From: Chrysoperla carnea | Lineage: Eukaryota > Arthropoda > Insecta > Neuroptera > Chrysopidae | Assembly (NCBI RefSeq): GCF_905475395.1 | Contig: NC_058338.1 | Location: 40,149,935-40,213,934 of the forward strand | DNA length: 64,000 bases | Reading direction: 5' to 3' | Part shown: one piece after another, positions 3,079-57,042 of the stretch | Numbering within the stretch: position 1 is the stretch's first letter | How the letters are laid out: every line of letters starts with the position of its first letter | Program-made: the position numbers and the translations under genes | The notes under the pieces: model-generated | What the model was told of the DNA's origin: nothing | The model's input: only the letters and a program-made list of their open reading frames with translations | The model's database searches: none

Positions 3079-5257
3079 GTATTATTTAATTGTATGTACC
3101 TAGTTGAATTCAATTTATTAATTGAGTTTAAATAAACTGATCTGTTACTAGATCCTCATGACTGATGGGTACTTTAATTTTATTGAAAATTGGTTTTCCT
3201 AGAAGAAAATCGATATTGCTTTATATTTTTTAAATTTGTAAGCAATGATTTTTTTCTTATATTTGTAATTTAAAATATTTTTTTGTATAAACTTAAATAT
3301 TTTTGATGTAATTAATTATTTACGTAAGCCAACAAGCCATGCTTCTTAATTTACTGTGTAATTAATGCTGTACCTAAATGAAAAAAAAAAAAAAATTTAA
3401 ATGAGAAAACACATATTTATTTACTTTTTTTGATTTTTATAATCATTGAGGGACGTAAGTCTTACAATAAATGATTGAATGTAAGATCAGTCAAAAAGTT
3501 GTCAAGAAATCTGTCAAGTAATGTAGATTCGATTCGTTACGTTCGATTAGTATAAAATTAATATCTTTTTGAAATTCCAAACTTCTATCATCAGCGATTC
3601 AGGCTGGGCGTCGATATATCAGCCGAGACATTGCCTATTCCCCCTCCAGATTATTTCTCCCATCTGAAATGTTTCTGATTTTAAATAATATAGGTACAAA
3701 AAGAAATAATATGAAAAAAAAATCATCAAAATCGGAGCTGTCATTGAGGACTCCCGACTAAAAACATTCATTGATGCGACTATTTATCATTCGAAAAAAT
3801 AGAAAATATAAGTACAAATACTACGCCGAGAAATGAACCCGATTTTATGCACGCTATAAAAATTACAAATAAATTAAATACTTAAAAAAATTCAAATAGG
3901 TAATTACATATATACAATAATTCAAATAAATTAATAGGTTTTAATCAGAATTCAGTAATTAAAAGCTAAAAGCTCCCTGTTTAATTATTTTTCTTTTAAT
4001 TTTTATAACGTGCTTCTAATGATTTCGTGAGAATCAATAAGCCCACCCTGAAATAATAAGTACAAAATATTTATATTACATTTTTCAGTAATTATATTTA
4101 AATATATAGTAAGATACATTTAAATGTATGGTTTTCTAGTAAGAAAACAAAGCCCTTTTAAAAAAACAGTAAAAATTTGTAGGTATTATTATGACGAGCC
4201 CTAAAACATTTTTTAATTAAGAATAAATTCTCATAAATGATAAAAATCTTTGCACAAAGTAAAAAATTTAGTGCAATTCCAAATTTTCAGTTTTCAGATT
4301 AGCAAGGAAATATCCATTTTAATTTTTATCTTCATCTTTTTCATCTGAATACATGTTCAAACAATTTCAACAAAGTGCACGTATAAGGCGTGTTTCGCGT
4401 TATCAAAAAACCACTACCAATAAAATGTTGAAATTTTGTGTTTAGGATTTTTTAACATCTAGTTGCGAATCTTCCTTTTTGATAACAAACGCCTGGACCC
4501 AAAATGTGTAAATTAGGTCAGAAAATTAATTAAAGAAAGGTTTTAATTTTGTATTATTTGATCTTCGATCTCCTTCAGTTAAGCGCTTTAGATTGCTTAC
4601 TCAAATATTGTTGTTTTTCATTTTTAAAATTTGTATATTTCATATTTTACAAATCAAATGTTACCTGTATATCATTCTATTTCTCTCTTCCTGGCTTAAC
4701 GTCAGACCACGCCCATCCAATCCCTATTATCCAGAGCTTGACTGGCTATTAATACACCTCTCGTGATCTCTTAAGATAATTAAGATAATAAAGTTCTTAT
4801 TATAAAGTAATCTTCTGAGAACATGAAAAGTAAAAATAATCAATATCGAAAATCTCAAAAACTAGACTACAACTTGAGTAAGTATGAGCAAGATGTCCGC
4901 ATGATTACTTGAATGGGATAGAGAGACTAAATATATTTACTATTCATATTTAAACGAAATGCAAGCTGTAGGTATACTCATGTTTCATGTATAGTATACA
5001 CTTGGTATCACAATAAGTCTCAGCCAGGTGTAATTTTAATAAGAACGTTTAGGTATTCATTATTTTATCTTTTCACACCCAAATGTTTCCAGAGAACCTA
5101 CGATCGGAATTTTGAATCCCATTCCATATACAAGAAACCCAAGACAATGGTTTAATGTATTCTCAAACCTTATAAATGCTATTTATTTCAGTTCAAATAT
5201 TTTATGCCGTTGAACAATCCATATGCAGAATTCTAACTATTGTTGGTCTTCATTTTC
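3079..5257. other. Intergenic region, no gene seen
   Basis: This runs from the 3' end of the first epoxide hydrolase to the repeat at 5258. The first 60 bases carry the AATAAA signal. A weak 67-codon open frame at 4549-4752 has composition typical of chance AT-rich translation. Nothing else is supported. Confidence 0.5.
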
Positions 5258-5816
5258 ATATAAACAAGCGAAAACAAACAATTGACAGAGTTAACTGTTA
5301 AAATACCATGAAAAAACAGTGTTGATTACTCTATCACATTACACATACATACATGTCACACATTCATAACTAATATAACTGATATTGCCCTATAATACAT
5401 ACTATACAATTTGCGCCCTCGCGGGTAAACAGTGATGTTTACGAAAAAATGTATCAAACAAAAGTTGTTTTGCTTTTCATAAGGAACATTTTTTTACATT
5501 TAAACTTTTGTTCTATATCAAACGGTTTACAAGAGACCCAATTGACCTATGTTGCTTATTTACGAACTCGGCCTAACTTTTTACGTCCTGAGTACGCGGT
5601 AAAAATTTCATCTTGATATCTTTTTTCGTTTTTGAGTTATCATGTTGGCAGACAGACGGACAGACGGACAGACAACCGGAAATGGACTAATTAGGTGATT
5701 CTTTGAACACCTATAGCAAAATTTTTTTTCGTAGCATCAATATTTTTAAACGTTACAAACTTGGGACTAAACTTAGTATACCTTGCATAATATTACATAT
5801 ATGCATGGTATAAAAA
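5258..5816 (+). repeat. Interspersed repeat R1, copy A
   Basis: The element begins near AAGCGAAAACAAACAATTGAC and ends GCATGGTATAAAAA. It has a GACAGACGGACAGACG tract and a block AACCGGAAATGGACTAATTA. A closely similar copy in the same orientation lies at 59022-59546, and truncated reverse-oriented parts lie at 39745-39966 and 43964-44155. There is no long open frame, so it is probably a non-autonomous transposable element. Class unknown. Confidence 0.75.
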
Positions 5817-9374: not shown

Positions 9375-12300
9375 TTTCAATTTTGAAGGGAAATTATGTT
9401 ATAACTAGACAATATAAAACGAAAAGTAATAAAATATTTCGATACTGGAATAATTCTCAAAATATGGGCAATTTTTTTTTAATATTTAGCTTTCGATATT
9501 TCGAAAATCAAAGCAGGTATCAAAAAATTAATTCTTATTTTTCGTCGGCATTCATGAAGTTGAAACATTTTTTTTCAACCTGATAATATGAGTTTTTGCG
9601 TTCATGACGATTTTAGCTATTTCAATCACTCAACAGATTTTGGTTCCCATATTTTGCATGCTCAATTTCTTGCAGAACCTGCTGTATTAAAAAAAAAATT
9701 AGTATAAAAATAATTTTCTTATTATTTTTAAGCAATCGTCAGAAAGATACCATTAATAAATTTTCATTTGCTCTTAATAAATTGTTATGTTATTACATGA
9801 ATGCAACCCAAAAATTTGATGTAGTCGATGCTTGGCATCGGCAATTACCAAATGGGACATGGATTGGTATGATAGAAAGGGTACATTTAGGAGAAGATGA
9901 TGTTACTGGTAAAAAATTGCTTGAAATTTCAATGAAAATAATCAATTACGATTTAAAAAATTTGTAGGTTCAGGAATAGCTATGTTACGAAAACGATGCG
10001 ATATGATTCGTTATATCGGTAGAACATTCAAGTGTCGTGTGAATTTCGTATTTCGAATGCCGCCTCTTTCGTTAGTGAGTAACATTCTAACTTTGTCGTT
10101 CCAAGCCAAAGTATGGATTTTTGGTGGAGCTCTGCTATTGTTGATGTTTTTAATGTTGAAGTATATGTTCATAGCAGAAGCTAAATTAACTGCAAGTATT
10201 AAACAAATTTCCTATGGTTTTTGTAACTAATATTTCAGCTTTCAGCTATTTCTTCTTAAGTTGGTGTTTAGACGTGTAAAACAGGAAATGGGGTTGTGTA
10301 CTTAAAATCGATCAAGTTTAATGCCTGCGTAAGATGTGCGCCTATACATACACCCAAAATTTTTCACAGGAAGCATTTTTATCGATATTCAAGCACATGT
10401 CAACTTAAAAAAGTTGAAAGACACCCTGTATGTTTTTACATGGAGTTTTGATCGGGATCTTTCATTTTCGTCTCTATAAGCGTTGTTATAGCCGATTTTT
10501 ACCATAGAGAGAAAAATTGCTTATTAGTTCAAGCTAAAAATTTATCGATTATATGATCAATTTTATAATGAACACAATAGATCTTAAATCTATAGTTTCT
10601 AGCCTGAATTTTACATATTATAAATGGTTGCTTATGTTTTGACTCTATTTTGCTTTTCTTTTTTACTTACCTGAATAAATTTACGTGGGCTGCCTTTTGA
10701 CGAGCTAGATTGGTACTAAATCTTTCTTTATTAAACATTATAATATTTTTTTTTTTACTTTTTGGTTCTTTTACTTTATTTTTTTTGCACATATTTATAG
10801 AAAAATATTATATCCATTTAAATATTTGTATCTAAGTGTGTCTTGTTTTGGAGAATTAATGAATATATCATTTGTTTGCATATTTTTAGCAAGGTGAAAA
10901 ACAAAACATGAACAATGCTTTGTCATTACAAGGATGGTCATCCACTTCGCTGTTTCTTGTAGGTTCTTTATGCCAACAAGGTAAATTCATTTATCTAATT
11001 TGAAAAACGTTGCCAAAAGGCTTAACATGTTTTAAACCGATGAAAGTATTTAATACATAAACCTAGCTTTGACTGATTATTAGAAAAATGAAGTAATCAA
11101 ATGAAGTAAATTTCAATGAATTTATCATACAATCAAATTGATCAAAATGAATGATCAAATTGAATCATCGGTAGAAACAGCCCTGTTTTTGGTAAAACAT
11201 ATTAATCAACAAATAATTATCAAAATGTAATGAAATTTAGCATGTACTTAACATGAAAATGGACATTTTGAGACTTCTAAGTATTAAATAATTTCTTCCA
11301 ATTTAAGGATGTACGAGCGAAAGGGTTATTTTGGATAAAAGCTTGATTTTTTTGTATATGAAGTTGAACTAAGTCTAAATCAATTCTGAAAACTTTAGGG
11401 AGGGTGGTTTGCCCGAATATTTAAATAAATAAATGACTTCAAAAGTAGGCATATTTAACATTGGTCTTAAGGGAAAACGGTAGATGGATGTAGATGGTAG
11501 ATGGATATGTTTTCATAAATTTCTCCTTGGCGCTCGTACTACCTAAAACGAAATACTAAAACATTTTCTATACATATTTAGGTTAGTAAAAGCTTTAAAT
11601 AATAAATATTTTCTAAAATTTTTTGTTTAAGGTGTTGAGAAGGAACCAGAAACTATTGCAGGACGCATTGGTACAATTTTTGTACTTTTAGTTATGCTAT
11701 TTATGTATACATCATATTCAGCTAACATTGTAGTTCTTTTACAAGGAACCGCTTCGGGTCTTGATACAGTTGAAGAATTTTTACAAAGTCCAATTAAAGT
11801 TGGATTTCTAGATTTTGAATTTTCAAGAACAATGTTTATTGTAATGAAAATTATATTTTAAAGCATTTTCATAATTCGAATTATAATTCGTTTGTAAATT
11901 TTAGAACTCATCTCATCCTATACGAAAATTGATTTTCGAAAAGAAGAGTGGTCCAAATGAATTTTATTCTTACGCAAAAGGTGTAGAAAAAATAAGAAAT
12001 GATTTTTTTGCATTTTATGGAGAACCAGGTCTAATATACGATTCAGTATCCAAGACATATGAAGAATATGAAAAATGCGACTTTAAAGAAATCTTTACAC
12101 CCGGTGAAGTAAATAAAAATTTAAAGGTTTATTGTTTGTTTTAAACAAATTAAAATATTAAAATTTTCTATTTAAGATTTCATCCATATTTCATGCAACT
12201 CCACATAAATCTCCTTATATTGAGATATTTCGAACCGGGTAAGTAAATAGTGGAAAAAGATTTGCATTTTTAAACAGATTACAAATATTTGATTGTTGTA

Positions 12301-12524
12301 GATTAATTCGTCTGGAAGAGACTGGATTACAACAAAAATTCGAATCAAGATATTATAGCCCGCAACCAAAATGTGGAATTTCTAATGCTAAATTTGTTGA
12401 AGTAGGAGCTACTGAAATTTATTTTGCTTTTCAGGTTTTGTTTTGTGGTATTGGTGTCTCTATAGTGATATTTATAATCGAATATTGCGTTTATAAAAAA
12501 ATTAGAGTTAAAAGATTGGATTAA
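6170..12524 (+). CDS. Ionotropic receptor, IR75 group, 626 aa, 11 exons
   Basis: A variant ionotropic glutamate receptor, in insects a ligand-gated channel subunit of sensory neurons; IR75-clade receptors commonly detect acids or amines. Exons: 6170-6323, 7273-7418, 8261-8447, 8977-9136, 9733-9908, 9968-10222, 10894-10980, 11632-11840, 11905-12126, 12177-12238, 12302-12524. Phases agree throughout, giving 626 residues, the usual IR75 length. The start has a signal peptide-like stretch (WSIFLLAYFCILS). An IR75-type N-terminal domain follows (KHFVSPNKWVLLLG, then RRRNLNGYEM), then S1, M1 at about 323-344, the pore exon at about 360-388, M2/M3 ending in SYSAN (416-420) and the last membrane helix at about 592-616. 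The join at 10222/10894 is the least certain: two AGs lie 4 bases apart at the acceptor, and only the second keeps the frame. The exact subfamily member cannot be named. Confidence 0.9.
6566..6625 (+). repeat. 15-bp tandem repeat, four units
   Basis: The core TTGTAATCT starts at a strict 15-base spacing in units beginning 6566, 6581, 6596 and 6611. It lies in intron 1 of the IR75-like gene. Confidence 0.85.
6665..6783 (+). repeat. Direct repeat, about 50 bp, two copies
   Basis: Copies at about 6665-6714 and 6734-6783 begin AGTCTAGCAAATTCTAGAAC and AGTCTAACAAATTCTAGAAC and differ at only a few bases. They lie in intron 1 of the IR75-like gene. Confidence 0.85.
7169..7334 (+). repeat. Parent arm of the inverted duplication, overlapping exon 2
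   Basis: This is the counterpart of 5816-5932. It holds the end of intron 1, its TAG acceptor at 7270-7272 and the first codons of exon 2. Because it sits at the correct place in the gene, it is the source of the duplicated segment. Confidence 0.75.
9328..9371. repeat. (TA)n dinucleotide microsatellite
   Basis: About 22 TA units in an intron of the IR75-like gene. It explains the Tyr-Ile open frame read through it on the minus strand. Confidence 0.95.
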
Positions 12525-15853: not shown

Positions 15854-18800
15854 ATGGCTAAATTAGGTTGTTTGCAATTATGTGTCATATATTCATTATC
15901 CTTATATTATACAATCCAATTTTGTTTTCAATTATTGTATTACTATTTACGTGGAATTAAATTTTGGAAAATTAAAGAGCGTCGAGTACCACCATCTAAA
16001 ATACTTATGCCAGAGGTTGGGCATCATTCCCATATACAATTAAAAGTAAGTTTAAAATCATTAATTTGTGAATTACATTTCCCGACAGTGATTAAATAAA
16101 TAATAATATTACATTCTATCCAGACTGACTCAAAAAGTTTTTTTGAATATTTTCAGAACATAAAAATGCATTATGTTGAAGCTGGGGACAAATCTAAGCC
16201 TTTAATGGTATTTATGCATGGTTTTCCAGAATTTTGGTACTCTTGGCGACATCAATTGAAAGAATTTCATAACGAATATTGGTAAGTCCTTAAAATATTT
16301 TAAATCAATTCAGATCAAGTTTATGATTATTTTAAGATAAACTATGAGGTACAGATGCTAGGTGATATCTAATTATCGTTGCCCTCAGTAGGGATTCAAG
16401 GAGTTGTAAGATATGCATAACATAAACATTAAATAGATTTTAGACTTAACTTTCTCGGTGTCTCTAATGTGTCTATTTTTCTGCATTGTTAATACAACCA
16501 TTATTATTTTTATTTCGAGGTGCGTTGCCGTGGATATGAGAGGATATGGCGATACTAGTAAACCACCAAAAGTAAGCGATTATAAAATTGCTGATATAGC
16601 AGGAGATATCAAAGAATTAGTAGAAGCTTTAGGCCGTAAAAAGTTCATAATGATTGCTCATGATTGGGGTGGAGTTGTTGGCTGGTCATTTTTAGATTTA
16701 TACGCTGATATGGTAGAAAAATATGTAATAATGAATGCTCCACACACTGATGCATGGGATAAATTAATGGAAATTGATAAAACTCAATTTTCTAAATCAT
16801 GGTGAGTAAATAAGGTAGCATCTTAGATAATTCAATTCTAATCAAACTATCAATGATCAAAAATGCCTATGGCTTTAAAAATTGTGTAAATGAACCTTCA
16901 AGGTGTATAAACGTCTAGGATAACGCATAAAAAGAAACTAAATGTGTGTTGTAAACGCATAAACGTAAACTATCGTAGTATACCTACATAGGATTCATTA
17001 CTAATAAGTCACTTTCGTACCCAACATCCATTTCTTTATGCATTTTTGCAATGTATCTTTTCCCTCCGTTCTCATAGGTAACAGCATTAGACAGTCATAC
17101 CATCCTAACCCACTATTACGTAACTTTCCAGATTCATAAATAAAATTCAAATATTTCTTACAAAAATAACTAAACATTAGACATTTATCATTTCTCGTAA
17201 ATTCTTCTCGTTGCGTAACTTAAACAAAAACAGTCATTTCGTAGTTACTTTCCCTTCTATTTAAACAAAAACTTAATGATGAATGATGTACCCATTAGTA
17301 CATATTCGCGACTCCAAGATCTTATTAAGTGGTACTACCTTGTTGTTTGATAAGGTATATCAGTATATGCATAGCTCTGGCTCATAAGTCAACTAATTGA
17401 CTTTAGTATAAAAATGATCAAAGATACTAATTGAGATCTCTAGGATATTTCGATTTCTAGGATGTGCAGACCGTTGCCAAACTAGCAACGAGTAATATAC
17501 ACAATAAGAGTTATTATGATTAGCTAATTCATACTGATGATGACTTCTTGGCAGTCGAAATACGTATTCATATGATACAAAAGTTTATCTAAGAAATTGG
17601 GGCAAAAATCGTAATTTAATTGACTTTAGCTTCTTTGCTAATTTTACTCATAATTTTTACACCCCACTCGCGGGCTTATAAATAAGTGAGTAGAAATCAG
17701 GTAATTATTTTGGAGTCACGAACTGGAGTGGTATATAACATTAGGTTTTCTCGTATGCACATTCGAATCCATCTTAAGTATTAATTATATTATACGATAG
17801 CAAGACAGGCGTTAGTTTTGTCCAAACTTCTAATATTATGGCGTTTTATTTAAATAAAACTGTTTCAAATTCTGAATTCTGTTTATTTACAAATTTTTAA
17901 GTGCTATGTTTATTTCAGGTATGTAATATTTTATCAAATGCCATATTTCCCAGAATTACATGTATCTTTGAATGATTTTGAACTAATGGATGACATCTAT
18001 GCATTTGGTCCGAATAAAGTTAAAAATGAAGAAGATATTGAGGCATATAAATATACGTTCAGCAAACCAGGTACGTGGACACTACACCTCAAAGGATACC
18101 GTAACAATAATTCAAATTGAGAGCTGATTGTTTAAAATAATACCAAAAGATAAAATAGATTTCGCGGAATATAGAACCACACTACAAGCGGAATAAGGCT
18201 AAATTACAATAATTAGAACAAACATTACATGTGATTCCCATATAATGTTATAGTTAAAATACTTAGAATGGTAAATCAAGTGCTTTTTTTTCGTTTTCTT
18301 TTTGTGATAGAGTGAAAATGAATATGATACAAAAAAATTAAAATTTTATATATCGGTTAATCACCCGTTTGTGGAAAATTCATACCGATTCTCTATACGG
18401 TTTATTCATTGGATCCATTTATTTCATATCGGTGCTCAGTTTCGACAAGACTTCTTATGGTAGAGTTATTATTAATAAGATGACTTAGATATACAGCCAG
18501 CTTTCAGGATATACATATTACAAACCAAAGTGGCACTAAGCAAAAGAGAGTATATATTTCTTGCTCAGAGCCACTTTGATTTGATAGAACTCTCTAACGA
18601 AATTAAATTCATATTGTTTCCAGGTGCTTTAACCCCTCCAATAAACTACTACAGGAACTTATTTACAACAGATCCAACAGTCAAACGACCAGTTGAAAAA
18701 GAACCTCCTGGATTATTTATTTTTGGTGATGCAGATATAGCTTTAAGTGTTGCGTACGTTGATATTATGCCACAAGTTGTTCCTAATTTAAAATCGAAAA

Positions 18801-18886
18801 TTATAAAAGGTGGCAGTCATTATGTGCAACAAGATGATCCAGTAGCCGTCAATAAAGCAATGCGTGAATTCTTAAATGAAAATTAA
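15854..18886 (+). CDS. Epoxide hydrolase 4-like, complete, 337 aa
   Basis: Five exons: 15854-16045, 16157-16281, 16520-16801, 17919-18070 and 18624-18886 (1014 nt, in frame). This is an alpha/beta-hydrolase epoxide hydrolase of the EPHX3/EPHX4 group. The N-terminus is a hydrophobic anchor (IYSLSLYYTIQFCFQLLYYY), suggesting an ER-membrane protein with the catalytic domain outside the bilayer. Motifs: HGFPEFWYSWRHQ (85-97, oxyanion loop), CVAVDMRGYGDTSKP (107-121), AHDWGGVVGW (152-161, nucleophile Asp154), lid Tyr near 205 (FYQMPYFPE) and Tyr259/260 (NYYRN), acid Asp288 in FGDADIAL and His316 in GGSHYVQQ. The set is complete, so the enzyme is probably active. The start is the first Met before the anchor. 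AATAAA occurs at 18913-18918. Substrate is unknown; insect juvenile hormone epoxide hydrolases belong to the EPHX1-like branch, which this does not resemble. Confidence 0.92.
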
Positions 18887-21468: not shown

Positions 21469-24400
21469 TTACAATTTTTCTATTTGTGAACGATATAAAG
21501 CACTACGTGCACGCCATTGCTTTGATGCCGATAATAATGTTTGCCAATCATCATTATTATTGTTATTATTATCGTTATTATTATTATTATTAACATTTTT
21601 ATTATCATTTAATTGTATAATATTTTCATCTAATTTCACTATTTCTTCAAATATATCGCCTGAGAATGGATTACATAATGTCGGTAAATTTTTCAATTTT
21701 TCTTTCACTGTTTCTAAATCAGCTAGAAAAAAGAGTAAATGATAGTAAACGATCTCGTTAGGTGATAAAAAGTTATCGTTAAGTGATTTAACTATGATTA
21801 AACTTGAAGTACAATTTTGAGAATTAATATTTTTCTTAAAATAAATCCCAAGCCCTGGATTACAATCAAAGGCGAAAACAAACTGTTTCATAGACTTCCA
21901 ATCATACAAAATTCACAGCCATATCTCTAAAATCGGGGATTGAATTTTTATAAAAGTTGAAATCACATTATTTATTACCTTACGTTAAATTAGGTAATTA
22001 GTGAAAATGTGTCAGATCAAAAAATGGAAAAGAGAACATTTTGTTTTAGAATTTAATTTTCTATTTGACACAACAAGGGCGACTGTTACTCCTGTCTTAT
22101 GCCTTTAAAAAAAAAAATTCTCATAAATTAAGGTTCCCTTTATTATCAAGACAAATCCCCATATGGTTTTTTATGCACCTCTTCTCTAAAAATTATGTAG
22201 GTATATAAGTAGGAGAATTAAACTGCATAATGCTTTATTTTGCAAGTGCTATTTTTCAAAAGATTTCACGATAGAAAAATTAATACTATTTCAAGCATGT
22301 TCAACGAATATTTACTTACCTATATAATCACTTCTACTAAATGCTCGAGATGTTGATGGCCTCATTTGATACAAATCGTCAGCAATTTTCGCAGATGAAG
22401 AAGGGATACTACTTGTTGTAGCCGGTCGATTATCGAATGGAGTTGAAATAATCCGAGTATTTTTTAATGGCGGTAGTTTTATTATATTACGTGTTAAGAT
22501 ATGAGGTTTTAGTGACGTTTCAAACTAAAACAATAGTATAAAAGGGTTGTATTTTGCACAAAATACATATTCATGAAACTTACAACATCGTTCTGCGATA
22601 TATTCAATATTTCAGTAATATCTTGTGATGAAGATGGTCTAGAAAAGTCGGATGAATTCCGAAGAAAGCTACTAGGATGTTGCTGTCGTGGTGTCGTGGC
22701 TTTGGGTGAAGAATGTGTGCTGCTATTATGTGTTCGCGTTGTTGAAGGCCTTTTGGGCATTTCTGTTGATTGTTTGTTATCATTCATAGACATCGAATTG
22801 CTTCCTTAACAAAATAACTTCCTTAAATAATGAAAACCATTTCAAAAAGAAAAAATAAATAAAAAATAGTAAGTAGGAAATGTCAAGCTTAACGGCGAAA
22901 ATGAATTTGGGCCTACATTTGTTTGCCAAGCTTTAATTTGTAAGCTCTTAGCCGAACTTTCCCTGAGATTTGCACAACATTGGTTTGGCAATACCAATGC
23001 GCTCCTGTCTTGACCAATGCTAATAAAGTTTGTTGTTAATTCATAATTATGTTATAACGATTGTAGAAATTAAGCTCATGTGAGAAAATCGCTGATGTTT
23101 ATATATCTTTATACAGATATTTAATATAAAGATAATATAAGGATAATATAATTGGTAACATTTGACTGAACAACTCTATGAATGCGGTACTGTAAAAATT
23201 AATTGGTTCACAAAAGTATAGTACATGAAGAATATCAAATTATAAAACGGAGAGATCTAAATAAAATCCAAATAAGATATCATAATAACACAAAATTAAA
23301 TTTTTTTATGCCCCAAGATTTAGGCGAAGATCGGAAACCACGCTTGCTGTAGAATCTGACAGCCAAGCTTGAAATTACGTTAACACTAAATTATAAATCA
23401 AGTGTAATTATAGTGAATTAATATTGTTTTTCTGTCCCGAAGGGAGACTGAAAAATTGATAGACCATGACATGAAAATACCATAAATCTTTTTTCTTTGA
23501 AGAATGTTTAAATATTGATTAAATAGTTTTAGTCGAGGCGGGAGTAGGATTCTTTTTTTTTGCTAGTATGTCGAGCTATGAGGCAACGTTGTATTGTTTC
23601 CATGGTAATAATAATTTTGATAAATAATGAAATAATATAAACATTGGCAAATGGCTAAAAATCATAAAAAAATGTAATATTAATCTTTTTTTTTTTTTAT
23701 TTTGAAAAAAAAACTTTTGTTCTGTAAAAATTAAAATATTTATATGAAATTTAAAGTAATGCTAATTTGCCGGAAACTTATAGGTATCGTACTTGCAGCA
23801 ACTTTATTATCTATCCATGTAAGTTTTTTAAGACTTTATATCGTCTCTCAGGCATAATACCAATTCATTAAAATCAAAATCAAAATGGCTACAGGGTGAA
23901 ATTCGAACTATTCTTTTACCCTTGTTCTTGGTCCATACGGTTTGTTTATCTGTACCTCGGACAATTCTCAAAAAATGTGTTACCTAAATTCGCCATAGAG
24001 ACATAGAGAAGCATTCCTGTTCAGCAATTTTCTAATCGTTTTCTGAATTTCTTTAGTTTGTAAAGATTGCATATGCAAGATTTAGTATCTCGCCTGATCA
24101 AATTTTAGTATCGAGCCAATTGTTTAATTCGTTAGACTTACAACAACAAACTGCAATTCTCGAATTTATTGAATTTACAAATCCAGCTTTAACTCTACTA
24201 TGTCTCAACAATCAAGCACTCTCATCGAAAATTGATGAAATTCGTCAAATAACTACGCATGTGAATACTCAATTAAGTCAAATACTTGAAAAGTTTATTT
24301 CAAAAAATTCAATATCACTTAGTAATCGTCTTTTAATTCGAGAAAATCAAAATGTTCTATGTAAACTATTAATTAAATGGTTAGACGAAGAGCTAGTGCA

Positions 24401-27017
24401 ACTAGAAACCTTATTGGAGGTAACTTGCATAAACTTGAGGACTATTCATGAAAATATAAGAAAACACATTATTGATGCACTAAATAAACTGCCTCAAACT
24501 TGCATAACGGATAACTTTGAAATAAATGAATTACTTGAATATTTACGATTGATAATTGATAATTGTATCAGTGAAAATTTGTGCAAATTGGATTTTTACT
24601 ACGAACAAATCGCATTTAATTTAAATGAAATAAAAGTTCAATTGCACGACCTTCCATTTAAATTTATAAAATGTATGGCGTCAAAATCATTGGCTAATGG
24701 AAGTTTGATCATGTGTATCCGTTTAATTGGCAGAGAAATCTCATTAGCTACACCGCCAGCCGAATTAGAAGTAGTTCGAAATCAATTATCTTCAACATTA
24801 TCAAATATAACTGAAGCTATTATTAACTGTTCGCAAACTTGTTTAAAATTTAGTTTTTAATCTTATTAAGAGCCCTGCAATATGCTTATATTTTAATTTA
24901 AATCCAAAAAAATATTGAAATAAACACAATATTTATACAATAAACCACAGTAAATAAGATGAAATCGTACCATATAATCAAAATGTGAATCAGTGAAACT
25001 CAATACCACTTTATTATACAGAGAAAAGAGTTTTAATAGCAAGCAAGGTACGGGAGATTTATTTTATAGCTCAATGTTATAATAGTGATCGTTGATTTCA
25101 CCACCTTGGAGAGGACTCACTGGAAGGAGACAAGATTTATTCGGCATTTTTATGGCTTTGAAAAAAATATACCGTCTATCCCAGATTAACCTAGAGCTAG
25201 GAGAGAAATGCAAGGAGTTTACCACAATGTTGATATGATATAAAGAAGTATCTATGATACTACACTAAACTTATGTAACTTGAATCATTTTACCTGGAAC
25301 TCCAAAACTTTGACCATCCAATGAAACTAATTGGGGCAGCAAATATTTCATAACACGTCGATAATCTGATGTTTTAGATACTGGACAGCCTTCCAAATAA
25401 ATATGACGTAGTTCCAAACACAATGACAAGAATCCAACACATTGAATATCAGAAACTTTATTGCTTAAATCAGGATATTAACATTTTTTTTAAATAAAAT
25501 TATCAGAGCCTCCGATAAACAATTGTTTTTTCAGAAAAGACAGATTTAAATGTTTGCTTAAAATAAATGCACATATTTCGAACCACGAAAAAAAACGTGT
25601 CTTGCGGGAAGACACATTTTTAATATGTAATGAAAGGAGTATAACAGATACATATAGAATAAAAGTTGTCCCAAAAGTATGGTCAACGGAAAAAAAGGAT
25701 TGTCAGAATTGTCCTTTTTGCCTCCGAAATAAGATCTTTGACCTTGGAATGACCTTGAAGATCATGGTCAAAGTCAAATTTGGATGTAAAATATTTTTCT
25801 TCACAAAAATAGGAGTTCCCATTTGAAAAATCATTTTTTGCAGGGTATAGCTTTAAGGTTATGTTCAAGGTCAAATCAAGGTCACCATTGGATTCCGTGC
25901 CGAAAAATATGTCGGATGTGGCGGTTCTGCAGAGATTATCATGGAAAAATTAACTTTGACCTATGAATGACCTTAAATATTGTGGTCGGGGCAAAAGTTA
26001 AGATCATATTAAAAAAAAAAAACCACTTCGGAAGTCCTTGAAACCTAGCATTACGTATGCTTTAAAAACGTTTGAAAATGGGGGAAGTTTACTTCCAAAG
26101 CAATACTATGTTCGCAAAAGTTATAAAGATGTATTTTTAACATAATCGATTTATATTTTTAGACTCTATAATTTTAATGTCTTTTTGTGATTAAAAAAAA
26201 AAAAACATCATTTTTAAAAGTCAGTAATTAAAAGCAAAATAAAGGACTCATACTTATTCAAATTCAGCGTTTTTATTCTAGATGTAAATGCACACGGTCC
26301 CACATCTTCAATGAAATTTGATTCAGCATACAACTCCTCTAAATTTGGCAGACCCATTAAACCATCCAACGATACTAAATTACATTTACCAATATTCAAT
26401 ATTTTTAAATTATCTAGTTCTGATCCTAATGCTCGTATTGTTTTTATAACACTACCATACAAATTAATTTTGTTTAAATTTGGTAAAAAAGTTGATAATT
26501 TTTGTAAACTTATATCTTCATCTTGAATTTTAAATTCAATTTCTTTTACCGAGTCCAAATCATTAGTTTCAGCTGTCTCAATCTATGAGAATAAACCAAA
26601 AAAAATAAATAAATAAATAAAAATAGGAATGTTCGATATCTGTTTAATCTTTTCTCGAAAGATGTTCCAAGAAAACTCTAGCCTTGATATATTTTAGGAT
26701 ATCCTTTGAAAATACATCAATACAACTTTTTTCTTTTTGTTCTTTTATGCTAGATAAATTTTGTATTATATCTTTTTAATAAAACAAGTACTTACTAACA
26801 TCTGTTGAATTGTCGTAATGGTTGGAACAACTACAGGTGAATATGTACGACCGTCACGATTTGTTGATGCTCCAGATTGATCCGATTCTAATGAAATTGA
26901 ATCATCACTTGATGAAGTTGTATTTAGTGAACCTTCTTCATCAGTAAGCGTTGATTGGCATCCAGCTTGATTCTGTTGACGATTTTCAGTAAGAACATTC
27001 AAATTATGAGGTGCCAT
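21469..27017 (-). CDS. LRRC56: LRRC56-like leucine-rich repeat protein, 466 aa
   Basis: Six minus-strand exons: 27017-26796, 26582-26254, 25463-25294, 22804-22584, 22524-22320 and 21722-21469 (1401 nt, all phases agree). The start context is AAAATATGG. A Ser/Thr-rich head (1-74) precedes four to five leucine-rich repeats: INLYGSVIKTI, LKILNIGKCNLVSL (133-146), LEELYAESNFIEDV (155-168), IKTLNLNNNKVSDI (177-190) and LRHIYLEGCPV (202-212). The LRR cap YRRVMKYLLPQLVSLDG follows. The C-terminal half is low-complexity and polar, with an asparagine run encoded by ATT/GTT triplets near 21550-21600. Repeat number, cap and layout match LRRC56, a factor for axonemal dynein delivery in ciliated cells; the human protein is somewhat longer. 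In an insect it would be expected in sperm or ciliated sensory neurons. Intron 3 (22805-25293) contains a separate plus-strand gene. Confidence 0.8.
23744..24860 (+). CDS. Secreted cysteine-rich helical protein, 292 aa, nested in LRRC56 intron
   Basis: Exons 23744-23818 and 24057-24860, with a GTAAGT donor, a TTTCTTTAG acceptor and a phase-0 join. Exon 1 and the start of exon 2 encode a signal peptide (IGIVLAATLLSIHFVKIAYA). The mature part is about 260 residues, predicted largely helical, with ten cysteines, an even number consistent with five disulfides, and several NxS/T sites. No membrane segment follows the signal. AATAAA-type signals follow near 24919. The gene lies wholly inside the third intron of the LRRC56-like gene on the opposite strand. 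I do not recognise the family. The length of open frame, the start and the splice sites all support a real gene. It could be a salivary, seminal or haemolymph protein, but nothing in the sequence decides this. Confidence 0.75.
25640..26040. repeat. Repeat-like block rich in AAGGTCA half-sites
   Basis: This block in LRRC56 intron 2 carries repeated phrases of GACCTTGAA and TCAAGGTCA in both orientations. Exact YCAAGGTCA sites are at 25739-25747 and 25750-25758 (minus) and 25865-25873 and 25876-25884 (plus). Related TGACCTTAA occurs at 25969-25977. The phrasing is typical of an interspersed or degenerate tandem repeat. The sites match the consensus of monomeric nuclear receptors such as FTZ-F1 or ERR, but binding is not shown. 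Confidence 0.5.
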
Positions 27018-35763: not shown

Positions 35764-37183
35764 TCTAAGTCAATCGTGCTGTACAGACACTCTGTACAAT
35801 TACTGATTAAAATATATATTACTCTTCAATTACGTTCTTAAAATACATATCTCCTTCATTTAAGTGATAACATCTTTTTATATGACTTGTTGCTCCCATT
35901 TACTTCTTACTGAAGCATACTGTAGTAGAATTTGTGACAATATTCATGATTCAGGCTATACAATATTTCTATTTCAGGACTTTGGATACTCAGTACTAAC
36001 AATACATTATACATAATATCATAAGCTTAAGCAATATCTTTCTTTAAGCTCTTTTCTGGATACTTGTTGTGAAGATAAAGTTAGCCTTCGTCTTAGGTTC
36101 TTAATGCTCCAATTTTGTTAACGATAGCCCAGTTTTAATTCACCCAATAGTATTTCTATATCATACGTTCCATTTAATGACTTTGGTATATTAGTGTGGA
36201 CAGTTTCTCCACGCTAATGCCTAAATTTCAGTCTTAAAAAATATTTAATGTATATTAATGGTTAACACTTAATAATGCCACTGAATATTTTATATATTAA
36301 TTGCTCATAGTTTTCTGCATTTAAAGAAAAAAGTTTCCTTCAATCCATTATTTAACAATTATCTAAACATGTATCTAACATGCAATTTACGATAATAATA
36401 TGCCAATATTAAAGTTAAAAAAGAATACGAAGCAACTTCAAATAACCGTTCATTAATATTTGAAAAGTTCTATTTAGAAAGGAATAATTTGTGATTAATA
36501 CAAATAGATTTTAATTCCAGAAAGTTTTGTCCTGAATACACAGTCATCAACAAGTCATCTAAGGTGGTTTTGCTTAAATTTGAATGAAGTCATAGTTCAT
36601 ATCTTTTACCATTTCTTGCATGCAGATTTTCAACCAGAATTTCCCCGAATACTTTTGAGATCCAAATGGTATGACAAAAATCACTGTCATTAATTTAAAG
36701 TAACAACTATAGCTTAAATTCCAAGCATTGAGTGAATAATTTACTTTTTTTACCAGCAATCTCTACCCTTGTTCGATGTTTCAGTGAGAGTTTTATTTTT
36801 CTACATCACCATAGACAAGATCTATAGAGAGATTTTCAATGGAGAGATCTATAGAGAAATTTTCAAGTATCTATACTAGATGCTTGGAGATACAATTATA
36901 CAGAAATTCGATTTTTTTTAAGTATTTTGTTTCACAAACCTTTTTATACCTCTCGTTAATAAAAAAAAAACTTAGTTAAGAACTCTCTTAATAGTAGATA
37001 CAAATTGAATGATAAAAATAGCCACTCAAATTCGGTTTCTCTCCAAAATGTACTTTAATTTTCATTGATAACATACGTTTTTTCAATAATACCTAGTTCT
37101 ACCAAATTAGTGCTAGAGCACTAGCTTTGTGAAATAAAAATTTTTCAACACAGCACTTTTTTATACTGCGTATAATATATAGT

Positions 37184-37456
37184 AGTGTAATATATAATAT
37201 ATAATATATAATATATAATATATAATATATAATATATAATATATAATATATAATATATAATATATAATATATAATATATAATATATAATATATAATATAT
37301 AATATATAATATATAATATATAATATATAATATATAATATATAATATATAATATATAATATATAATATATAATATATAATATATAATATATAATATATAA
37401 TATATAATATATAATATATAATATATAATATATAATATATAATATATAATATATAA
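37184..37456. repeat. (ATATAAT)n 7-bp microsatellite, about 39 units
   Basis: About 270 bases of a near-perfect 7-base unit. Because 7 is not a multiple of 3, it reads through as a 7-residue YYILYII repeat on the minus strand, producing a spurious 119-codon open frame at 37161-37520. Confidence 0.97.
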
Positions 37457-38279
37457 AAAATTCGCCTAAAAACGGCGAAAAATCCGTTTTTCGGTTAGAT
37501 TCGAAAATCCATAATACCACAATCCTTTCTCTTCCCTCTTCCTTTAAATTACTTTTTGAATTTTTCCGATATCCGATATTAAACTTATTGAAATAATGGT
37601 AGTCGGATCAAAGCATAGCCAAAGGAGACAATTAAACTGAAACGATTAAATTTTCCTCACTTAGTGCAATATGTCTACATTTAGACTTTACTCGTTATCG
37701 AATTTAGCAGTTCGAATAAGACATTTTCGATATTTAATATATAGAATCGCCACGAACCAATTACAATTTTTTTCTGAACTAAATAACGCTATAAAGTGAA
37801 TTAGATACACATAAAAATTATGTAATTTGAATATAGATAGAAATTCAATTTTTTTAATCATTCTAATTTCTTTTAGAGAAAATTTTTCATATTTAAGTTT
37901 TACATATCATTTAAACTGACATTGAATATTTTTCAAAATTTATTACACTAAATATTTCAAGTTGTAATACAAATTATTATTGTTAATTTTTAAAATTGTT
38001 ATCTACGTTATAAAAATGATATCACATAAATTTTCTTTTTAGGGTCCAGTTGCAGCTATTTTATAGGAATTTTATTTTCTATCACAATCAAGGCCATTAT
38101 ATTAATACACTCATCACAAAGAATTTAAGAAACATTCCAAAAAACACAAAATGCTACCAAAATTTTAAACAGTTGTATATGGCAACTTGCCTTTCTAGTT
38201 TTAAAATCTATTGCTCACCAATTTTTGTAATCCCTTGTTGCTTTGCCTTGAGAGTCGAAGGATGAGAAATTTTTTTCTA

Positions 38280-40860
38280 AATTTGATGTTAAGCTTAGTA
38301 AAATTCTAAAATTTTAAAAATAATGCTGTTACAAATCCACCATTCGAATCGATCCATAAACATGCGATCTCTCGAAAGTTTATTTTTTTTGAAACTGAGC
38401 TATAACAAATGAAAACAAACAATTGACTGAGAAATTCGATAATATACAATAAAACTATTGCTCGAGGGTTCTCCTATAAAATTGTAATTTCTCAAATTCG
38501 ATCATTGATAGTGTACGTATATGTTCAAGAAGCAATTACAAACTCGTCTTTGCATTTTGAATTCAAATTCTAGTACACTATATCTTGTATTTGGATTTAA
38601 AATATATTCCTGATGAGACCCTCATTTACTAGGATTCAGGGCCAAAATATCCAAATTGATGATGTGCACTTCAGTTTCGTCGCTTGAACTTAAAGTGCCA
38701 TATCTTAATTTCATTCACCAAATAAAGTTTCTTACTCAATCCTTATTTCGAATAAATTCATAAGTATACCTACATTTACTTTTTCAAAGACGCTTGAGAT
38801 ACTACACTAAATATTATGATCGATGAAAAAAGCTCTTTTTACATTCCCGAACCTACTATGGTTTGGTGTAGCAATACACTTTTCATAACAATCAGTCAAT
38901 GTTATAGACGACCTTTGGACTTTAACGAAAATCATAATTTGTTGAATTTGTATATAATTAAATAGTTAATAGTGATGGTATAAGTGAAAATTAAAATACA
39001 TTTCATGTCAGTCATACCAAATACAGTTTTGTATGACTCATTACAAAAAATTAAAACATCTTTATAAATACCTAAATTTTACAAAATAAAATTGAATTGT
39101 AATTATTTAGAGTACAACTATACTTTCGTAGCTATAATGCAAATCGATTTCACTGACCCTATCACGAGCCTTATTACCATAACTGAACTTTAAATACAGC
39201 TCTATCTAACGTTTCTTAATTTTTGGCGAGAAGACATTAAGTACTGTCGGTGGAAAATACGGGTCCGTAAATTCTAAAAATTTACCTACCTTTTAAGTAG
39301 AAATAAGACCAATCATGTAAAATACTAAATAAGAAGATTTGAAGTTATTTGAAAACTTGTAGTTATTTGGGCGAAGATTTTAGTAGCACCGTGTAAGATA
39401 ATCCATGGTGCGAAAACTTATTAAAAAGATAATTCCAACCAAACTCCTTGTTTGGCCTTAGCAACAAAAGAAATAATATCTTATGAAATTTGATGAAGGA
39501 GGCTGGATTAATCATCTCGCGACACTTTTATTAATGAAACTCATCTAATTAAAGTCTTACCTATAAAGCATTCTATTACCATAAAATGTTGAGATTATAT
39601 TTCTTCTGCTACGCATCTTTATCGTTATTCAGTTATGTCCATCATCTGGTTTGACCAAATTCAACTTTATATTTTCCATTTGAAATCGAGTTTTCCAATT
39701 TGTGTGTTTTGTCTGTTGCGTTGATTTGAGTGTAAGTTATTAACAAAACAATACATAAAAAATAAGTTTGTAACGCTTAAAAATATTGATGCTACGAACT
39801 AAATTTTTGTATAGGTCTTCATAAAATTGGTCCGAAGGGATCACCCAATTGGTCCCTTTTCGATTGTCTGCCCGTCCGACGAAAACAGATAGCGTAAACA
39901 ACTTTTGTTTGAAACATTATTTCGTAAACATCACTGTTTAACCATGAGGGCGCAAATAAGCTTAAATACATTATATAGTTTGTATATACAGGTACCTATT
40001 GTTTATATTTTAAAATATGTTACATATATTATGTATGTGTTTGTTTGTTTATCTTTCTTTGCTTATAAAAAACATTTGTACATCAAATATGGTGAAAGCA
40101 ATGGAAAAATCATGCCATACTTACCATAAACATAGATTTTCATTAGAAAGAAACATGTGTGTCAAATTTCATTCTGAAAGCTTCAGTGGCAGTGGGTGAA
40201 ATATTGATTATAAAATTTCAGAAAATACATACCTACAAGTGAAGTTAAATAAAACCTTTCCAAATGGGCAAGAATTTTAAGAAAAAGCTACAGGAAGCCC
40301 TCATGTTTCAAGCATTACGAAGATTATCAATGGCAGACTCGAACATCCTCATCGAGAGTTAGCTTCAATATGAGGTCACGGTAAAAAAGATGGGGGCTTA
40401 TTTCACATAATTATGTGAATAGAACATTATTTTAAATTTTCGTTCAAAAGTGAAATCATCCAAATATTCCAATTAGATTCAAATGCCCAAATGTACAAAT
40501 GTAATGTTGAAAAAAATTCAAGGTTACAAAAAGTAATTGAACACGTGTAACGTGATCGAATGCTATTATTGTGACCCAGACGTCAAAATACAAGGTTCAA
40601 TCATTTTTGTACTTTGTAATTAGACAATTTGTAGCGACAACAAAATCTAGGAAGAACAAACTGCGATTGCGCTTTTATTAATTTTTATAGCAGGACACCT
40701 AATAATAAAAAAACTATTACAGATATATAAATACAATTACTATGTCGCAACTTCAGCTAAATCCACTCGATTAAAGTAACCCTAGCAAAAATGAAATGGA
40801 ACATTAGTTATGTTTCGTTCGTCGTTTAGTAAAGTTGAACTTTCTTTCTTATGTTTGTTG
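38280..40860. other. Gene desert segment with truncated R1 copies
   Basis: No gene is supported. A short R1-like piece (GAAAACAAACAATTGACTGAG) is at about 38408-38428 and a longer reverse-oriented R1 part at 39745-39966. Confidence 0.45.
39745..39966 (-). repeat. Interspersed repeat R1, copy C, truncated
   Basis: Reverse-complement match to the 3' half of the R1 copies: GTAGCATCAATATTTTTAAG, CGTTACAAACTT and ACAGTGATGTTTACGAAA blocks in reversed order. It is more diverged in its middle than copies A and B. Confidence 0.65.
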
Positions 40861-40861
40861 T

Positions 40862-41690
40862 CTTAATAGCTTCCCATAGATTTTTTACCCTTTTGGGCAA
40901 CATGCAAAATCTTCATTTCTTGGTCAGGAATGTGTCCTTCTTGTATTACGTGGCTCGCAAATGCTGATTCACTTAATTTCTTTTTCTAGTATCTCCAATG
41001 TTCACCTTTTGTAATTTTGAAACTTCTCCCGAATTGACCTATATACACCCCAGAACAGTCTTTACACTTTAGCTTATAGATTCACGATTGATTCAATTTG
41101 TCCGGTTTTTGTTTGCTGTTAATCATTATGTCACATAGTTTTATTGGTGCCTTGAATGCGACGTTAATAACCAGCTTTTAAGGTTCTTTTTTATTATGTC
41201 CGATGTGCGTCCATAAATTATGTCAAGAGTTTATAATTTGTGGGTTTAGATATTTCCCTTTGGTATGCCGCTTTTAGACATATTTTTCTTTGATGATTTT
41301 CCAATATCCGATCCACCATTGAAGTTTCAAAACCATTATTAATTGCAATAGTGTTTATTTCTTTTCTCTGTGGACGGTGGTATACATAATGCTCTATGGA
41401 CCATTGACTGATATGCTGCCATTTTGTGGTTAGTGGGATGTAACAAATCATTGGGAATCGTGACGTCTGAGATTGTAGGTTTTCGAAATATGTCATATTC
41501 GAATTTATTACCCTGATTTTTGGAAATTTTTAAATCCAAGAAGTTAATTTCCCCGTTGTGCTCTTTTTCTAGGGTAGAGCTAATGTTAGAATTTAAGGTA
41601 TTGATATATTTCAAAAACTGATTCAGTTGTCTGTCAGTACCATCGAAACAAATCATTATGTTATCTACTATCTATCTTATGTGCAAGACC
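40862..41690 (-). pseudogene. Penelope-like retroelement relic (RT plus GIY-YIG endonuclease)
   Basis: Minus-strand fragments read like a Penelope-like element. From 41690 down: a reverse-transcriptase motif C reading IVDNIMICFDGT (expected YVDD, so the second Asp is changed), then EINFLDLKISK and RKPTISDVTIPNDLLHPTNHK. After a frameshift near 41340, INNGFETSMVDRILE follows. At 41200-40862 come KAPIKLCDIMINSKQKPDKL, then YKLKCKDCSGVYIGQFGRSF (GIY-YIG nuclease) and a helical tail. Stops and frameshifts break every frame and the 5' half of the RT is missing, so the copy is dead. Such elements encode RT fused to a GIY-YIG endonuclease and copy themselves by target-primed reverse transcription. 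Confidence 0.85.
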
Positions 41691-43963: not shown

Positions 43964-44155
43964 CTTTACGATATTTTACGAGGCGCAAATTGTATAGTAT
44001 GTATTGTATAGTATGGGAATATCAGTTATATGTGTATGACTTGTATGTATGTGTGGCTATCTTTCAAAAAAAACGATTGCGTAATTGATACTGTTAATAC
44101 ATGATATTTCAACAATTAACTCAGTCAATTGTTTGTTTTTACTTGTTTTAATTTA
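43964..44155 (-). repeat. Interspersed repeat R1, copy D, truncated
   Basis: Reverse-complement match to the 5' half of R1: AAACAAACAATTGACTGAGT, ATTGTTGAAATA and ATACTATACAATTTGCGC blocks in reversed order. Confidence 0.6.
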
Positions 44156-45135: not shown

Positions 45136-48100
45136 GATTAAATAACACTGTTGAAAGGTATGAAGAATTGGAACGTTCACTAAAAGGGCAAACAATCAAA
45201 GTTGTCACTTTTCAGGTAAATATAATTAATCTATTATGTATATAGATGGTTTGTTTTGAATGACTGATTGACTTGACTAACACAGACTAAACCAACCACT
45301 GACAATAGAGACCTGAAACTTGGCGGGTGTGTTTTTGCATGAAGCAAGCATTCGATAAGAAATTATTTTCCGAAATTCGACCCCTAAGAAGGTGAAAAAC
45401 GCGGGCAAAGTATGTATGAGACAACGTGATTCCTTGGTGTAATTATTTCAAATTTTGCATAAACATTCATTGATAGAAACGTGTTTCGTATTTTATTGAA
45501 ACTCATCGCCTAACAGGGTTAAAAAGGGGGTAGAAGGTTATTAGGAGGGTGATTTGCATCGAAGTTGATATTCTTCAATTTTGAATTAAATACTTAACCG
45601 ATTTTAAAAAATATTTCACCCTCTAAAGTTACATTATCAGCGAGTGTCATGGACTAAATGTTATTTTCCAAAAATTTAGAATTTCGCACCAAAAAGTTAA
45701 AATCAATAAAATTGTGAACAAAAGATTACCATTTTTCTAGTCATATAGGTACCACAGATATCTAGCTATAGGTTTCATTTTTAGAAAACGTCGTTTTATC
45801 TCAGAAACTTTAATCTCGGGAACTTAGTATGCAGGGCAATTAACTAACTTAAAATACTCTTAATATGAATTCACTGCTTACAGAATTCTCCTTTAAATAA
45901 TTATGAAGTCGATGAAAATGGAAATTATCGAGGTGGAGGAATCGCATTTACATTTCTGGATCTTTTAAGTAAAAAGTTTGAATTCAACTACACAATCATG
46001 ATACCAACTGATAAAGTTTTGGGTAATGAAAAAAAAGGAGTTTTTGGAGCTCTTGCGTCTGGGGTAAGTGGTAATTATACCTATTTCAGTACATTGTTAT
46101 TATGTTTCTATAATCAACTCGACAACATGAAATGCTTAAAAATCTTAAAATAAAACCACTTTTGTGAACTAATAATAAGATAACTCTAGGTTTTCTAGAT
46201 AAACTATGTACAATAGAGTAGTAGTATTAGTGTGTACGGTGAACGTATGGTAACATGGTAATAGATGTATGGTATGGTAATAGATGCTACAGGTAACGTA
46301 AAAATGACTTTACTTACAGTCTGAGGACCGATTCTTACATATTATGTTGTAGGGAACTGTAAATAATTTGAAATAAATACTGCCAGACACCTTATGTTGG
46401 CAGTTTATTACCAGACATTTCAAATATCGAAAGAAAAATCATAATATCTTGACACCTTCATAAAACTAATTTCACTTGATAATATATGTTTTAAGTATTA
46501 ACCCCCAATAAAATCGGAAAAACTACCCAAAATTACGTTTTTGGGCAGAAGGTGTCTGGCAGTATTAATTTCAAATCTTTTACAATATTCCCTACAGTGT
46601 ACATAAGAATCAGTCCTCAGACGGTAACCATAGTGAGTACAATTTTTACGTACCTGTAGCATGTAGTACAGAAAACATCAAAAAATTAGTTTAATTACCG
46701 TATACAAAACAGAATGACAAAAATTATATCCTGTATTGAATTTAATCACCATCGTAACATACATAAAATGCCGTATTCATGATAATAATTCTTAGCCATT
46801 CCATGGTGGCTCCTAGACTATAACTGTTTTGTAAAACAACTAAAAGTTACCTAATACAGCTGATTCGACAATCCATCTACGACATTTATACAGAATTATA
46901 TTGCCAACAGTCAAACGGTGTGGTCTGTAGCTTGTTCACTCAATAAATGCGGTACGCACAGATAAGCTATTGAATGAGCACAAAATGGTTCCAAAAGACC
47001 TCAAAACATGAAGTTTTTTGAAAACTCCAAATTTATCCTTTCAAGACAGTAACATCCTCTCAAAATTTGTCGCTGGTTTCAGGACAATATTGAAGAAATT
47101 CTGTATTTAAATTAATTTTTATTTAATACAAAACTCTACTAAATTAGGAAGCTGATGTGGCTGCAGCATTTTTACCCATTTTACCTTGGATACGTGGTGA
47201 TGTAATTGATTATTCATCACAATTGGATGTGGGTGAATGGATGGTATTACTAAAACGACCTAGTGAAAGTGCTACCGGATCTGGATTACTAGCACCATTT
47301 GATTATAAAGTTTGGATATTAATTTTTATATCATTGGTTATGGTTGGTCCAGTTATATATTGCATTATTGTGATGCGTAATAAATTGTGTCCTGGTGACG
47401 AAAAAAATAAAATTTTCTCCTTGCCGTCTTGTATATGGTTTGTGTATGGAGCGTTACTCAAGCAAGGATCGACACTTAGTCCAGCTTCTGGTAAGTCCAT
47501 GCATCTTTTTGAGAAAATTTTATATGCACAAGTTAAAATTTTTACAGTGTTACCTTTTTTTGCAAATTTTTTTAATAAGAAACTTGGAAAAAAATATTGG
47601 TAATTTAAAAAGGCATGGCTTTTTAGTTTCAAAAAAGACACTTTCTAGTATCTAGTAATCTTTTCGAAAACGGTACATATGTAAATTGATGTTTTTTATC
47701 AGTATTAATGTTGTTTAAATAATACAGGAACGGTTCTATTTTAAACGATTAAACGGTTTAGTTAGAAAAAAGTATTGTAAAAAAAATGTTTATTGTAGAT
47801 TATGTCTGAAATCGAAAAAAACAGCTATATTTACAAATTCTACTTCCTGTGTTTATTATGTCTCCTCAAGGAACTTTTTGAGCCAAGCCTCAATAGTTTA
47901 AAAAAGCGTTTTTATTGTTTCATTACCTACATTGTGTTTATTTAGTACCTATAATATTTTACTAAATCTACCATAGAGTACTGGTCGTAAAAATACGTGT
48001 GCTAACTCGTTGAATTCGGACAGATGTCTAGAAAAATGTGCCAGAAGCATTTTTCAGCACATAAAAAATTGCAAAAGTTATAAGCAGTTAAAGATCAAAA

Positions 48101-56160: not shown

Positions 56161-56224
56161 CGATCAACGCACAGCTCAAACCGCCGGGTCTAGAAGCCTG
56201 AAATTATAATAAGTTACAATGCAA

Positions 56225-57042
56225 TCTCAAGAACTATTCGACCAGTCGTCAAATGCACCCGATTTTTGTACTTTTTTGGCAAAATTACCTTATACACTGA
56301 GTTTTTTCGAAATTGGAGATAACAAAAATTTCTCGATTTTTTTGCATTTTTTAAGGGGTACCTCTTTGATAAAATCGGGAAAATCGAAAAAAAAATTTTT
56401 GTTTTGGAATTTGATGACACTAGGTGGATTGGGTAATTTTGACCCAAAAAGTATAAAAATCAGGTTAATTTAATGATTGGATGCAGAGTTTCTGACATAT
56501 CGCAATATTTGGATCGATTTTAGTCCGTATCTCAAAAACTATTCGACCAGTCGTCAAATGCATCCGATTTTTGTACCTTTTGGGTCAAAATTACCTTATA
56601 TACTGAGTTTTATCGAAATTGGAGATAACAAAAAATTCTCGATTTTTTTGCATTTTTTTAAGGGGTACCCCTTTGATAAAATCGAGAAAATCGAAAAAAA
56701 AAAATTTTGTTTTGGAATTTGATGAAACTCGGTGGATGGGGTAATTTTGATCCAAAAAGTATAAAAATCAGGTTAATTTAATGATTGGATGCAGAGTTTC
56801 TGACATATCGCAATATTTGGATCGATTTTAGTCCGTATCTTAAAAACTATTCGTCCAGTCGTCAAATGCTTCCGATTTTTGTACTTTTTGGGTCAAAATT
56901 ACCTTATATACTGAGTTTTATCGAAATTGGAGATAACAAAAATTTCTCGATTTTTTTTGCATTTTTTAAGGGGTACCTGTTTGATAAAATCGAAAAAAAA
57001 AAATTTGTTTTGGAATTTGATGAAAATCGGTGGATGGGGTAA
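56225..57042. repeat. Satellite-like tandem repeat, 305-308 bp unit, about 2.7 copies
   Basis: Units start at 56225, 56530 and 56838 with TCTCAAGAACTATTCGACCA or close variants. All share GTCGTCAAATGC, GAAATTGGAGATAACAAAAA, TTTTTTAAGGGGTACC and TTGGAATTTGATGA. The last unit is truncated at about 57042. Parallel open frames in each unit, with shared starts such as MDAEFLTYRNIWIDF, are a product of the repetition. Confidence 0.95.

What the first reader, a model, noticed from the sequence alone, without database searches (positions are those of the whole stretch)
23744..24860. Unrecognised secreted 10-cysteine protein gene nested antisense in an LRRC56 intron
A complete two-exon gene with signal peptide, consensus splice sites and 292 codons sits wholly inside intron 3 of the opposite-strand LRRC56-like gene. 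I cannot assign it to a family. The mature chain has an even number of cysteines and a helical look, so it may be an undescribed or lineage-specific secreted protein. The antisense nesting could also couple its expression to LRRC56.
Basis: partly seen in the sequence, partly recalled or inferred. Interest (0 to 1): 0.7.

Follow-up and report, generated by a model that had tools for sequence, protein, structure and literature searches.

The report
Orphan secreted-protein gene inside LRRC56 intron
A real-looking, single-copy gene for a secreted, probably helical, cysteine-containing protein sits backwards inside an intron of what looks like an insect cilia gene; such nesting is common in insects, and what is unusual is only that the protein matched no known family that could be checked here.

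Summary
Exon 1 (23744-23818) and exon 2 (24057-24860), joined by a GT-AG intron, encode 292 aa: a signal peptide (predicted cut A32|R33) and a 260-residue mature chain with ten cysteines. Exon 2 is the longest stop-free stretch in the 64-kb window (267 codons; about 7e-8 expected by chance in that intron). Two AATAAA signals follow the stop by 59 and 79 bases. The gene lies wholly inside a 2489-bp phase-1 intron (22805-25293) of a minus-strand LRRC56-like gene. Searches of its 559-Mb assembly found only itself. Nothing significant matched in Pfam, NCBIfam, PHROGs, PDB sequences, IMG/VR, GTDB contigs or phage records. No insect proteome or RNA-seq was available, so 'orphan' means 'no relative in these collections'. 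Codon usage is weaker than in the window's other genes. The AlphaFold model is helical but unreliable (pLDDT 45). Best reading: an independently transcribed, lineage-restricted, fast-evolving secreted helical protein with up to five disulfides. Opposite-strand intronic nesting is ordinary, and I found nothing that couples it to LRRC56. A distant TsetseEP/DUF725 relationship is possible but unsupported; the direct test never ran.

The parts
23744..23818 (+). coding exon 1: start codon and most of the signal peptide (25 codons)
   Evidence: in-frame upstream stop, hydrophobic core, GTAAGT donor
23819..24056 (+). intron, 238 bp, phase 0, GT-AG
   Evidence: donor CAT|GTAAGT, acceptor TTTCTTTAG
24057..24860 (+). 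coding exon 2: 267 codons plus TAA; end of the signal peptide (predicted cut after KIAYA) and the mature chain with ten Cys
   Evidence: longest stop-free frame of the window
24919..24944 (+). two AATAAA poly(A) signals (24919 and 24939)
23636..23641 (+). TATA-like motif 108 bp before the ATG; weak evidence in 71% AT sequence
22805..25293 (-). host intron (phase 1, 2489 bp) of the LRRC56-like gene; intron 3 if one coding exon lies upstream of exon 2
25294..25463 (-). host exon 3 (end of the leucine-rich repeats by eye; no Pfam match on its own)
   Evidence: exons 2 and 3 join in frame
26254..26582 (-). host exon 2 (leucine-rich repeats)
   Evidence: Pfam LRR_4, E 1.8e-13
22512..22804 (-). host exon 4 region (low end not determined)
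   Evidence: joins in frame to exon 3

Best explanation
It is an independently transcribed, single-copy, protein-coding gene for a secreted protein of about 30 kDa. The signal peptide sends the chain to the secretory pathway and is cut near A32|R33. The mature chain folds as a bundle of long helices that up to five disulfides tie together, and it may be N-glycosylated near its C-terminus (NGS 239, NIT 275, NCS 282). It acts outside the cell, most likely as a fast-evolving tissue secretion (gut, salivary, reproductive or haemolymph) restricted to its lineage. Its place inside the LRRC56 intron is neutral nesting, not a regulatory device. Shown: the gene structure on the DNA, signal-peptide-like sequence, cysteine content, no second copy found, nesting, and no match in the libraries searched. 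Inferred: expression, secretion, disulfides, helical fold, glycosylation, fast evolution, lineage restriction, tissue and role.
For: Open frame of 267 codons where chance expects about 7e-8, with splice sites, signal peptide and poly(A) signals in register. No second copy by DNA or by six-frame protein search of the 559-Mb assembly at E up to 10 (1 match, 2 first-look candidates scored). The host intron finds itself and four other pieces of 43 to 96 bases, none encoding a relative by tblastn at E up to 10. No significant family and no confirmed relative in viral, prokaryote or phage collections. All-helical secondary structure in the model, though unreliable. The Drosophila LRRC56 orthologue is reported as expressed exclusively in chordotonal neurons (PMC6367277, passages), which argues, by inference, against a shared role with a secreted protein.
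Against: No transcript or homologue was seen, so neither expression nor purifying selection is shown. The codon-usage score is only about 1.6 sd above non-coding ORFs, at least 6 of 175 non-coding ORFs score higher, and exon 1 scores below the non-coding mean. Fast evolution and lineage restriction cannot be told from 'relatives exist but were not in the collections'. The genome search scores only the best candidates, so distant paralogues could be missed.
Confidence: 0.6

Rival explanations
1. A highly diverged member of a known insect family of secreted, helical, cysteine-containing proteins, such as the TsetseEP/DUF725 group (PF05267): gut or fat-body proteins with regularly spaced cysteines (description recalled).
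For: Recalled only: cysteine spacings of about 20 to 30 residues (C127-C149-C174-C195-C201-C231; positions) and helical tendency resemble my memory of that family.
Against: hmmscan against Pfam-A up to E 10 gave no PF05267 match, only DUF6035 at E 0.084, below its cut-off. The intended search for PF05267 genes in the same genome did not complete (21 attempts, first, last).
Confidence: 0.18
2. An undetected viral or mobile-element gene captured in the intron.
For: No known family and atypical codon usage. Two short stretches of the host intron have weak copies elsewhere: 23658-23753 (AT-rich, overlapping the first 10 coding bases) and 25204-25246.
Against: No second copy of the coding part, an intron of its own, and no confirmed relative in IMG/VR, phages or PHROGs.
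Confidence: 0.06
3. A recent pseudogene or non-coding open frame.
For: Weak codon bias; no transcript data.
Against: 267 stop-free codons against a 153-codon maximum in 400 simulations, plus complete gene signals.
Confidence: 0.06
4. A nested gene whose antisense transcription regulates LRRC56.
For: It lies antisense inside the host intron. The start of the PMC8467205 abstract (seen in the listing only) cites evidence of transcriptional interference between Drosophila nested genes.
Against: The coding part does not overlap host exons, it has its own poly(A) signals, and nesting of this kind is common (PMC3786989, passages).
Confidence: 0.06

Closest known systems
Opposite-strand intronic nested genes of insects, e.g. 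2mit in timeless2 (PMC3786989)
   Same: A complete protein-coding gene within one intron of its host, on the opposite strand; about 6% of D. melanogaster genes are nested (passages).
   Different: Different host and different protein; conservation of the nesting is untested here (the same paper says only 20-34% of such relationships are conserved among Drosophilidae).
TsetseEP/DUF725 family (Pfam PF05267)
   Same: Secreted, helical, spaced cysteines (recalled).
   Different: No profile match.
Lineage-restricted (orphan) secreted insect proteins (recalled as a class)
   Same: Short two-exon gene, signal peptide, no recognised domain, weak codon bias.
   Different: Tissue and taxonomic spread unknown, so lineage restriction is untested.

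Membership tests
TsetseEP/DUF725 (PF05267) | significant match to the Pfam profile | tested here: not met
   no match listed up to E 10 (HMMER filters drop most matches above about 0.1)
TsetseEP/DUF725 (PF05267) | similarity to this genome's own members of the family | not tested
   21 attempts, none answered (first, last)
TsetseEP/DUF725 (PF05267) | signal peptide and helical, cysteine-spaced mature chain (recalled description) | tested here: inconclusive
   signal-peptide-like start and ten Cys present; helical model at pLDDT 45; these features are not specific
Opposite-strand intronic nested gene | whole coding sequence inside one host intron on the other strand | tested here: met
   host intron 22805-25293; gene 23744-24860
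LRRC56/ODA8 (host gene) | leucine-rich repeats in a gene whose exons 2 to 4 join in one open frame | tested here: met
   exon 2 LRR_4 E 1.8e-13, exon 3 alone no Pfam match; open frame; exons 2+3 match LRR proteins, best E 5.1e-21
LRRC56/ODA8 (host gene) | orthology to LRRC56 rather than to another axonemal LRR protein | not tested
Transposon or viral gene | multiple copies, or relatives in viral or mobile collections | tested here: not met
   PLSDB plasmids not searched

The most novel reading that the evidence does not exclude
It founds an undescribed family of secreted helical proteins with five disulfides, born or moved into the LRRC56 intron in one insect lineage, with a new extracellular role.
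Probability: 0.3. Interest if true: 0.4.

Novelty: new member of a known kind. Interest (0 to 1): 0.22.

Why it matters
If transcribed, it is one more orphan secreted protein for annotation pipelines that may miss nested genes, and a candidate for lineage-specific extracellular biology. By itself the nesting and the lack of a recognised domain are common in insect genomes, so it changes no general picture.

Tried and rejected
Internal duplication of the mature chain: best half-to-half BLOSUM62 score 39, reached by 30 of 100 shuffles (which were given fewer split points); rejected.

A paralogue hinted at by a 75% match of 97 aligned bases around the start codon (L004): its frame stops after four residues, and tblastn of the protein against L004-L007 gives nothing; taken as an AT-rich chance match.

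Fold search: not run, because the single-sequence model has mean pLDDT 45.4 with no residue at 70 or above, so its matches would be meaningless.

Naming the organism: paper searches for the assembly size gave two unrelated papers and none. The window's genes, its AT content and the large contigs suggest an insect, perhaps a fly; that is recall, not a result.

Family literature: a search for TsetseEP/DUF725 listed four papers; none was opened, so the family's description is recalled. RNA families: no Rfam match in the window. Tandem repeats at 22500-26500: one 30-bp array only, 23122-23151. The bacterial promoter scan was not used. PADLOC, PLSDB plasmids and E. coli genomes were not searched.

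Full report
The gene. On the plus strand an ATG at 23744 opens a frame of 25 codons ending CAT|GTAAGT; after 238 bases the sequence TTTCTTTAG leads into a frame of 267 codons ending in TAA at 24860. The join is phase 0 and splits the signal peptide: exon 1 gives the charged start and hydrophobic core, and exon 2 begins FVKIAYA, with a small-residue cleavage site (A-Y-A) before R33 (my reading; no signal-peptide predictor was available). The mature chain has 260 residues and ten cysteines. Leucine and isoleucine make up 29%, and glycine and tryptophan together about 1%, of the 261 residues analysed (mature chain plus A32), with pI 5.3. Three N-glycosylation sequons lie at 239, 275 and 282.

More than chance. 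In a 28.8% G+C window, 267 stop-free codons are far outside expectation. In 400 first-order Markov simulations of the intron (taken there as 22810-25295) the longest stop-free stretch was 153 codons (mean of the maxima 83), and the expected number of frames as long as the one seen, extrapolated from the simulated stop frequency, is about 7e-8. The other five frames of exon 2 carry 13 to 34 stops. AATAAA follows the stop by 59 and 79 bases. Against this stands a codon-usage score trained on 13 pieces (1157 codons) that I judged to be exons of known genes in the window; not every piece has a Pfam match of its own. It puts exon 2 at -0.024: above the mean of 175 non-coding ORFs (-0.233, sd 0.129), but at least six of them score higher, and it lies below the 11 training pieces printed (0.141 to 0.369). 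Exon 1 scores -0.431. I read this as unusual amino-acid composition and fast evolution, but it is weaker support than the open frame.

The host. Exons 2, 3 and 4 of the minus-strand gene join in a single open frame through introns of phase 2 and phase 1. Exon 2 carries leucine-rich repeats (LRR_4 E 1.8e-13); exon 3 alone gave no Pfam match; exons 2 and 3 together match LRR proteins of many kinds in the PDB (117 sequences, 60 shown, best E 5.1e-21). The nested coding sequence lies in the phase-1 intron 22805-25293 without touching host exons. In Drosophila the LRRC56 orthologue CG14185 is reported as expressed exclusively in chordotonal neurons (PMC6367277, passages seen).

Copies and relatives. 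In the window's own 559-Mb assembly the exon matches only itself, as DNA and as protein in six frames (E up to 10; two first-look candidates scored, so distant paralogues could be missed). The whole host intron gives four other matches of 43 to 96 bases. One of them, 23658-23753, overlaps the first 10 coding bases but its counterpart's frame stops after four residues, and tblastn of the protein against the four loci gives nothing. Profile libraries gave no significant family: Pfam best DUF6035 at E 0.084, below its cut-off; PHROGs best E 0.049; NCBIfam, exon 2 only, best E 0.12; PDB sequences best E 1.6. In IMG/VR 10 stretches matched a short peptide pattern and none was confirmed; in GTDB contigs 61 matched and none was confirmed; these two scans find close relatives only. 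Phage records gave no match at E up to 1. None of these is an insect protein collection, so the word orphan is relative to them.

Structure. A single-sequence AlphaFold model is helical, with long helices at model residues 20-74, 86-135 and 146-200, but mean pLDDT is 45.4 and pTM 0.35, so only the helical tendency can be used, and that weakly. No internal repeat was found.

Interpretation. The best reading is an ordinary nested, independently expressed gene for a lineage-restricted secreted protein with a disulfide-tied helical fold. Its tissue is unknown. A far relationship to the TsetseEP/DUF725 group is a recalled idea; the Pfam scan does not support it, and the direct comparison with this genome's own members could not be run (21 attempts, first, last). 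Nothing ties it to LRRC56 beyond position. Nested genes make up about 6% of D. melanogaster genes, and in eukaryotes they are frequently on the strand opposite to the host (PMC3786989, passages).

Noticed in passing
2030-3075 and 16437-18883: Two alpha/beta hydrolase genes in tandem on the plus strand (Abhydrolase_1 E 2e-7 for 2030-2476; E 7.3e-18 for 16437-16802); epoxide-hydrolase-like by recall. The piece 18479-18883 alone gave no Pfam match.
   Followed up: partly
9617-12521 and 45869-52441: Two ionotropic-receptor-like genes on the plus strand. Lig_chan passes its cut-off at 47148-47600 and 50455-50799; matches at 11631-11858 and 45869-46150 are below cut-off, 9617-9964 and 51911-52441 gave none.
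   Followed up: partly
57799-58272: SIKE-family exon (PF05769, E 2.3e-43).
   Followed up: partly
56224-57027: Three tandem copies of a unit of about 307 bp, 66-94% alike depending on the stretch compared without gaps.
   Followed up: no
5239-5789, 59004-59522, 38380-38450, 39764-39957, 44075-44148: Copies of an interspersed repeat in both orientations.
   Followed up: no
41221-41671: Minus-strand open frames that look to me (recall) like a broken Penelope-type reverse transcriptase; Pfam gave no retroelement match, only two hits below cut-off.
   Followed up: partly
37102-37607: Long AT-rich simple repeat that reads as YYILYII in translation.
   Followed up: no
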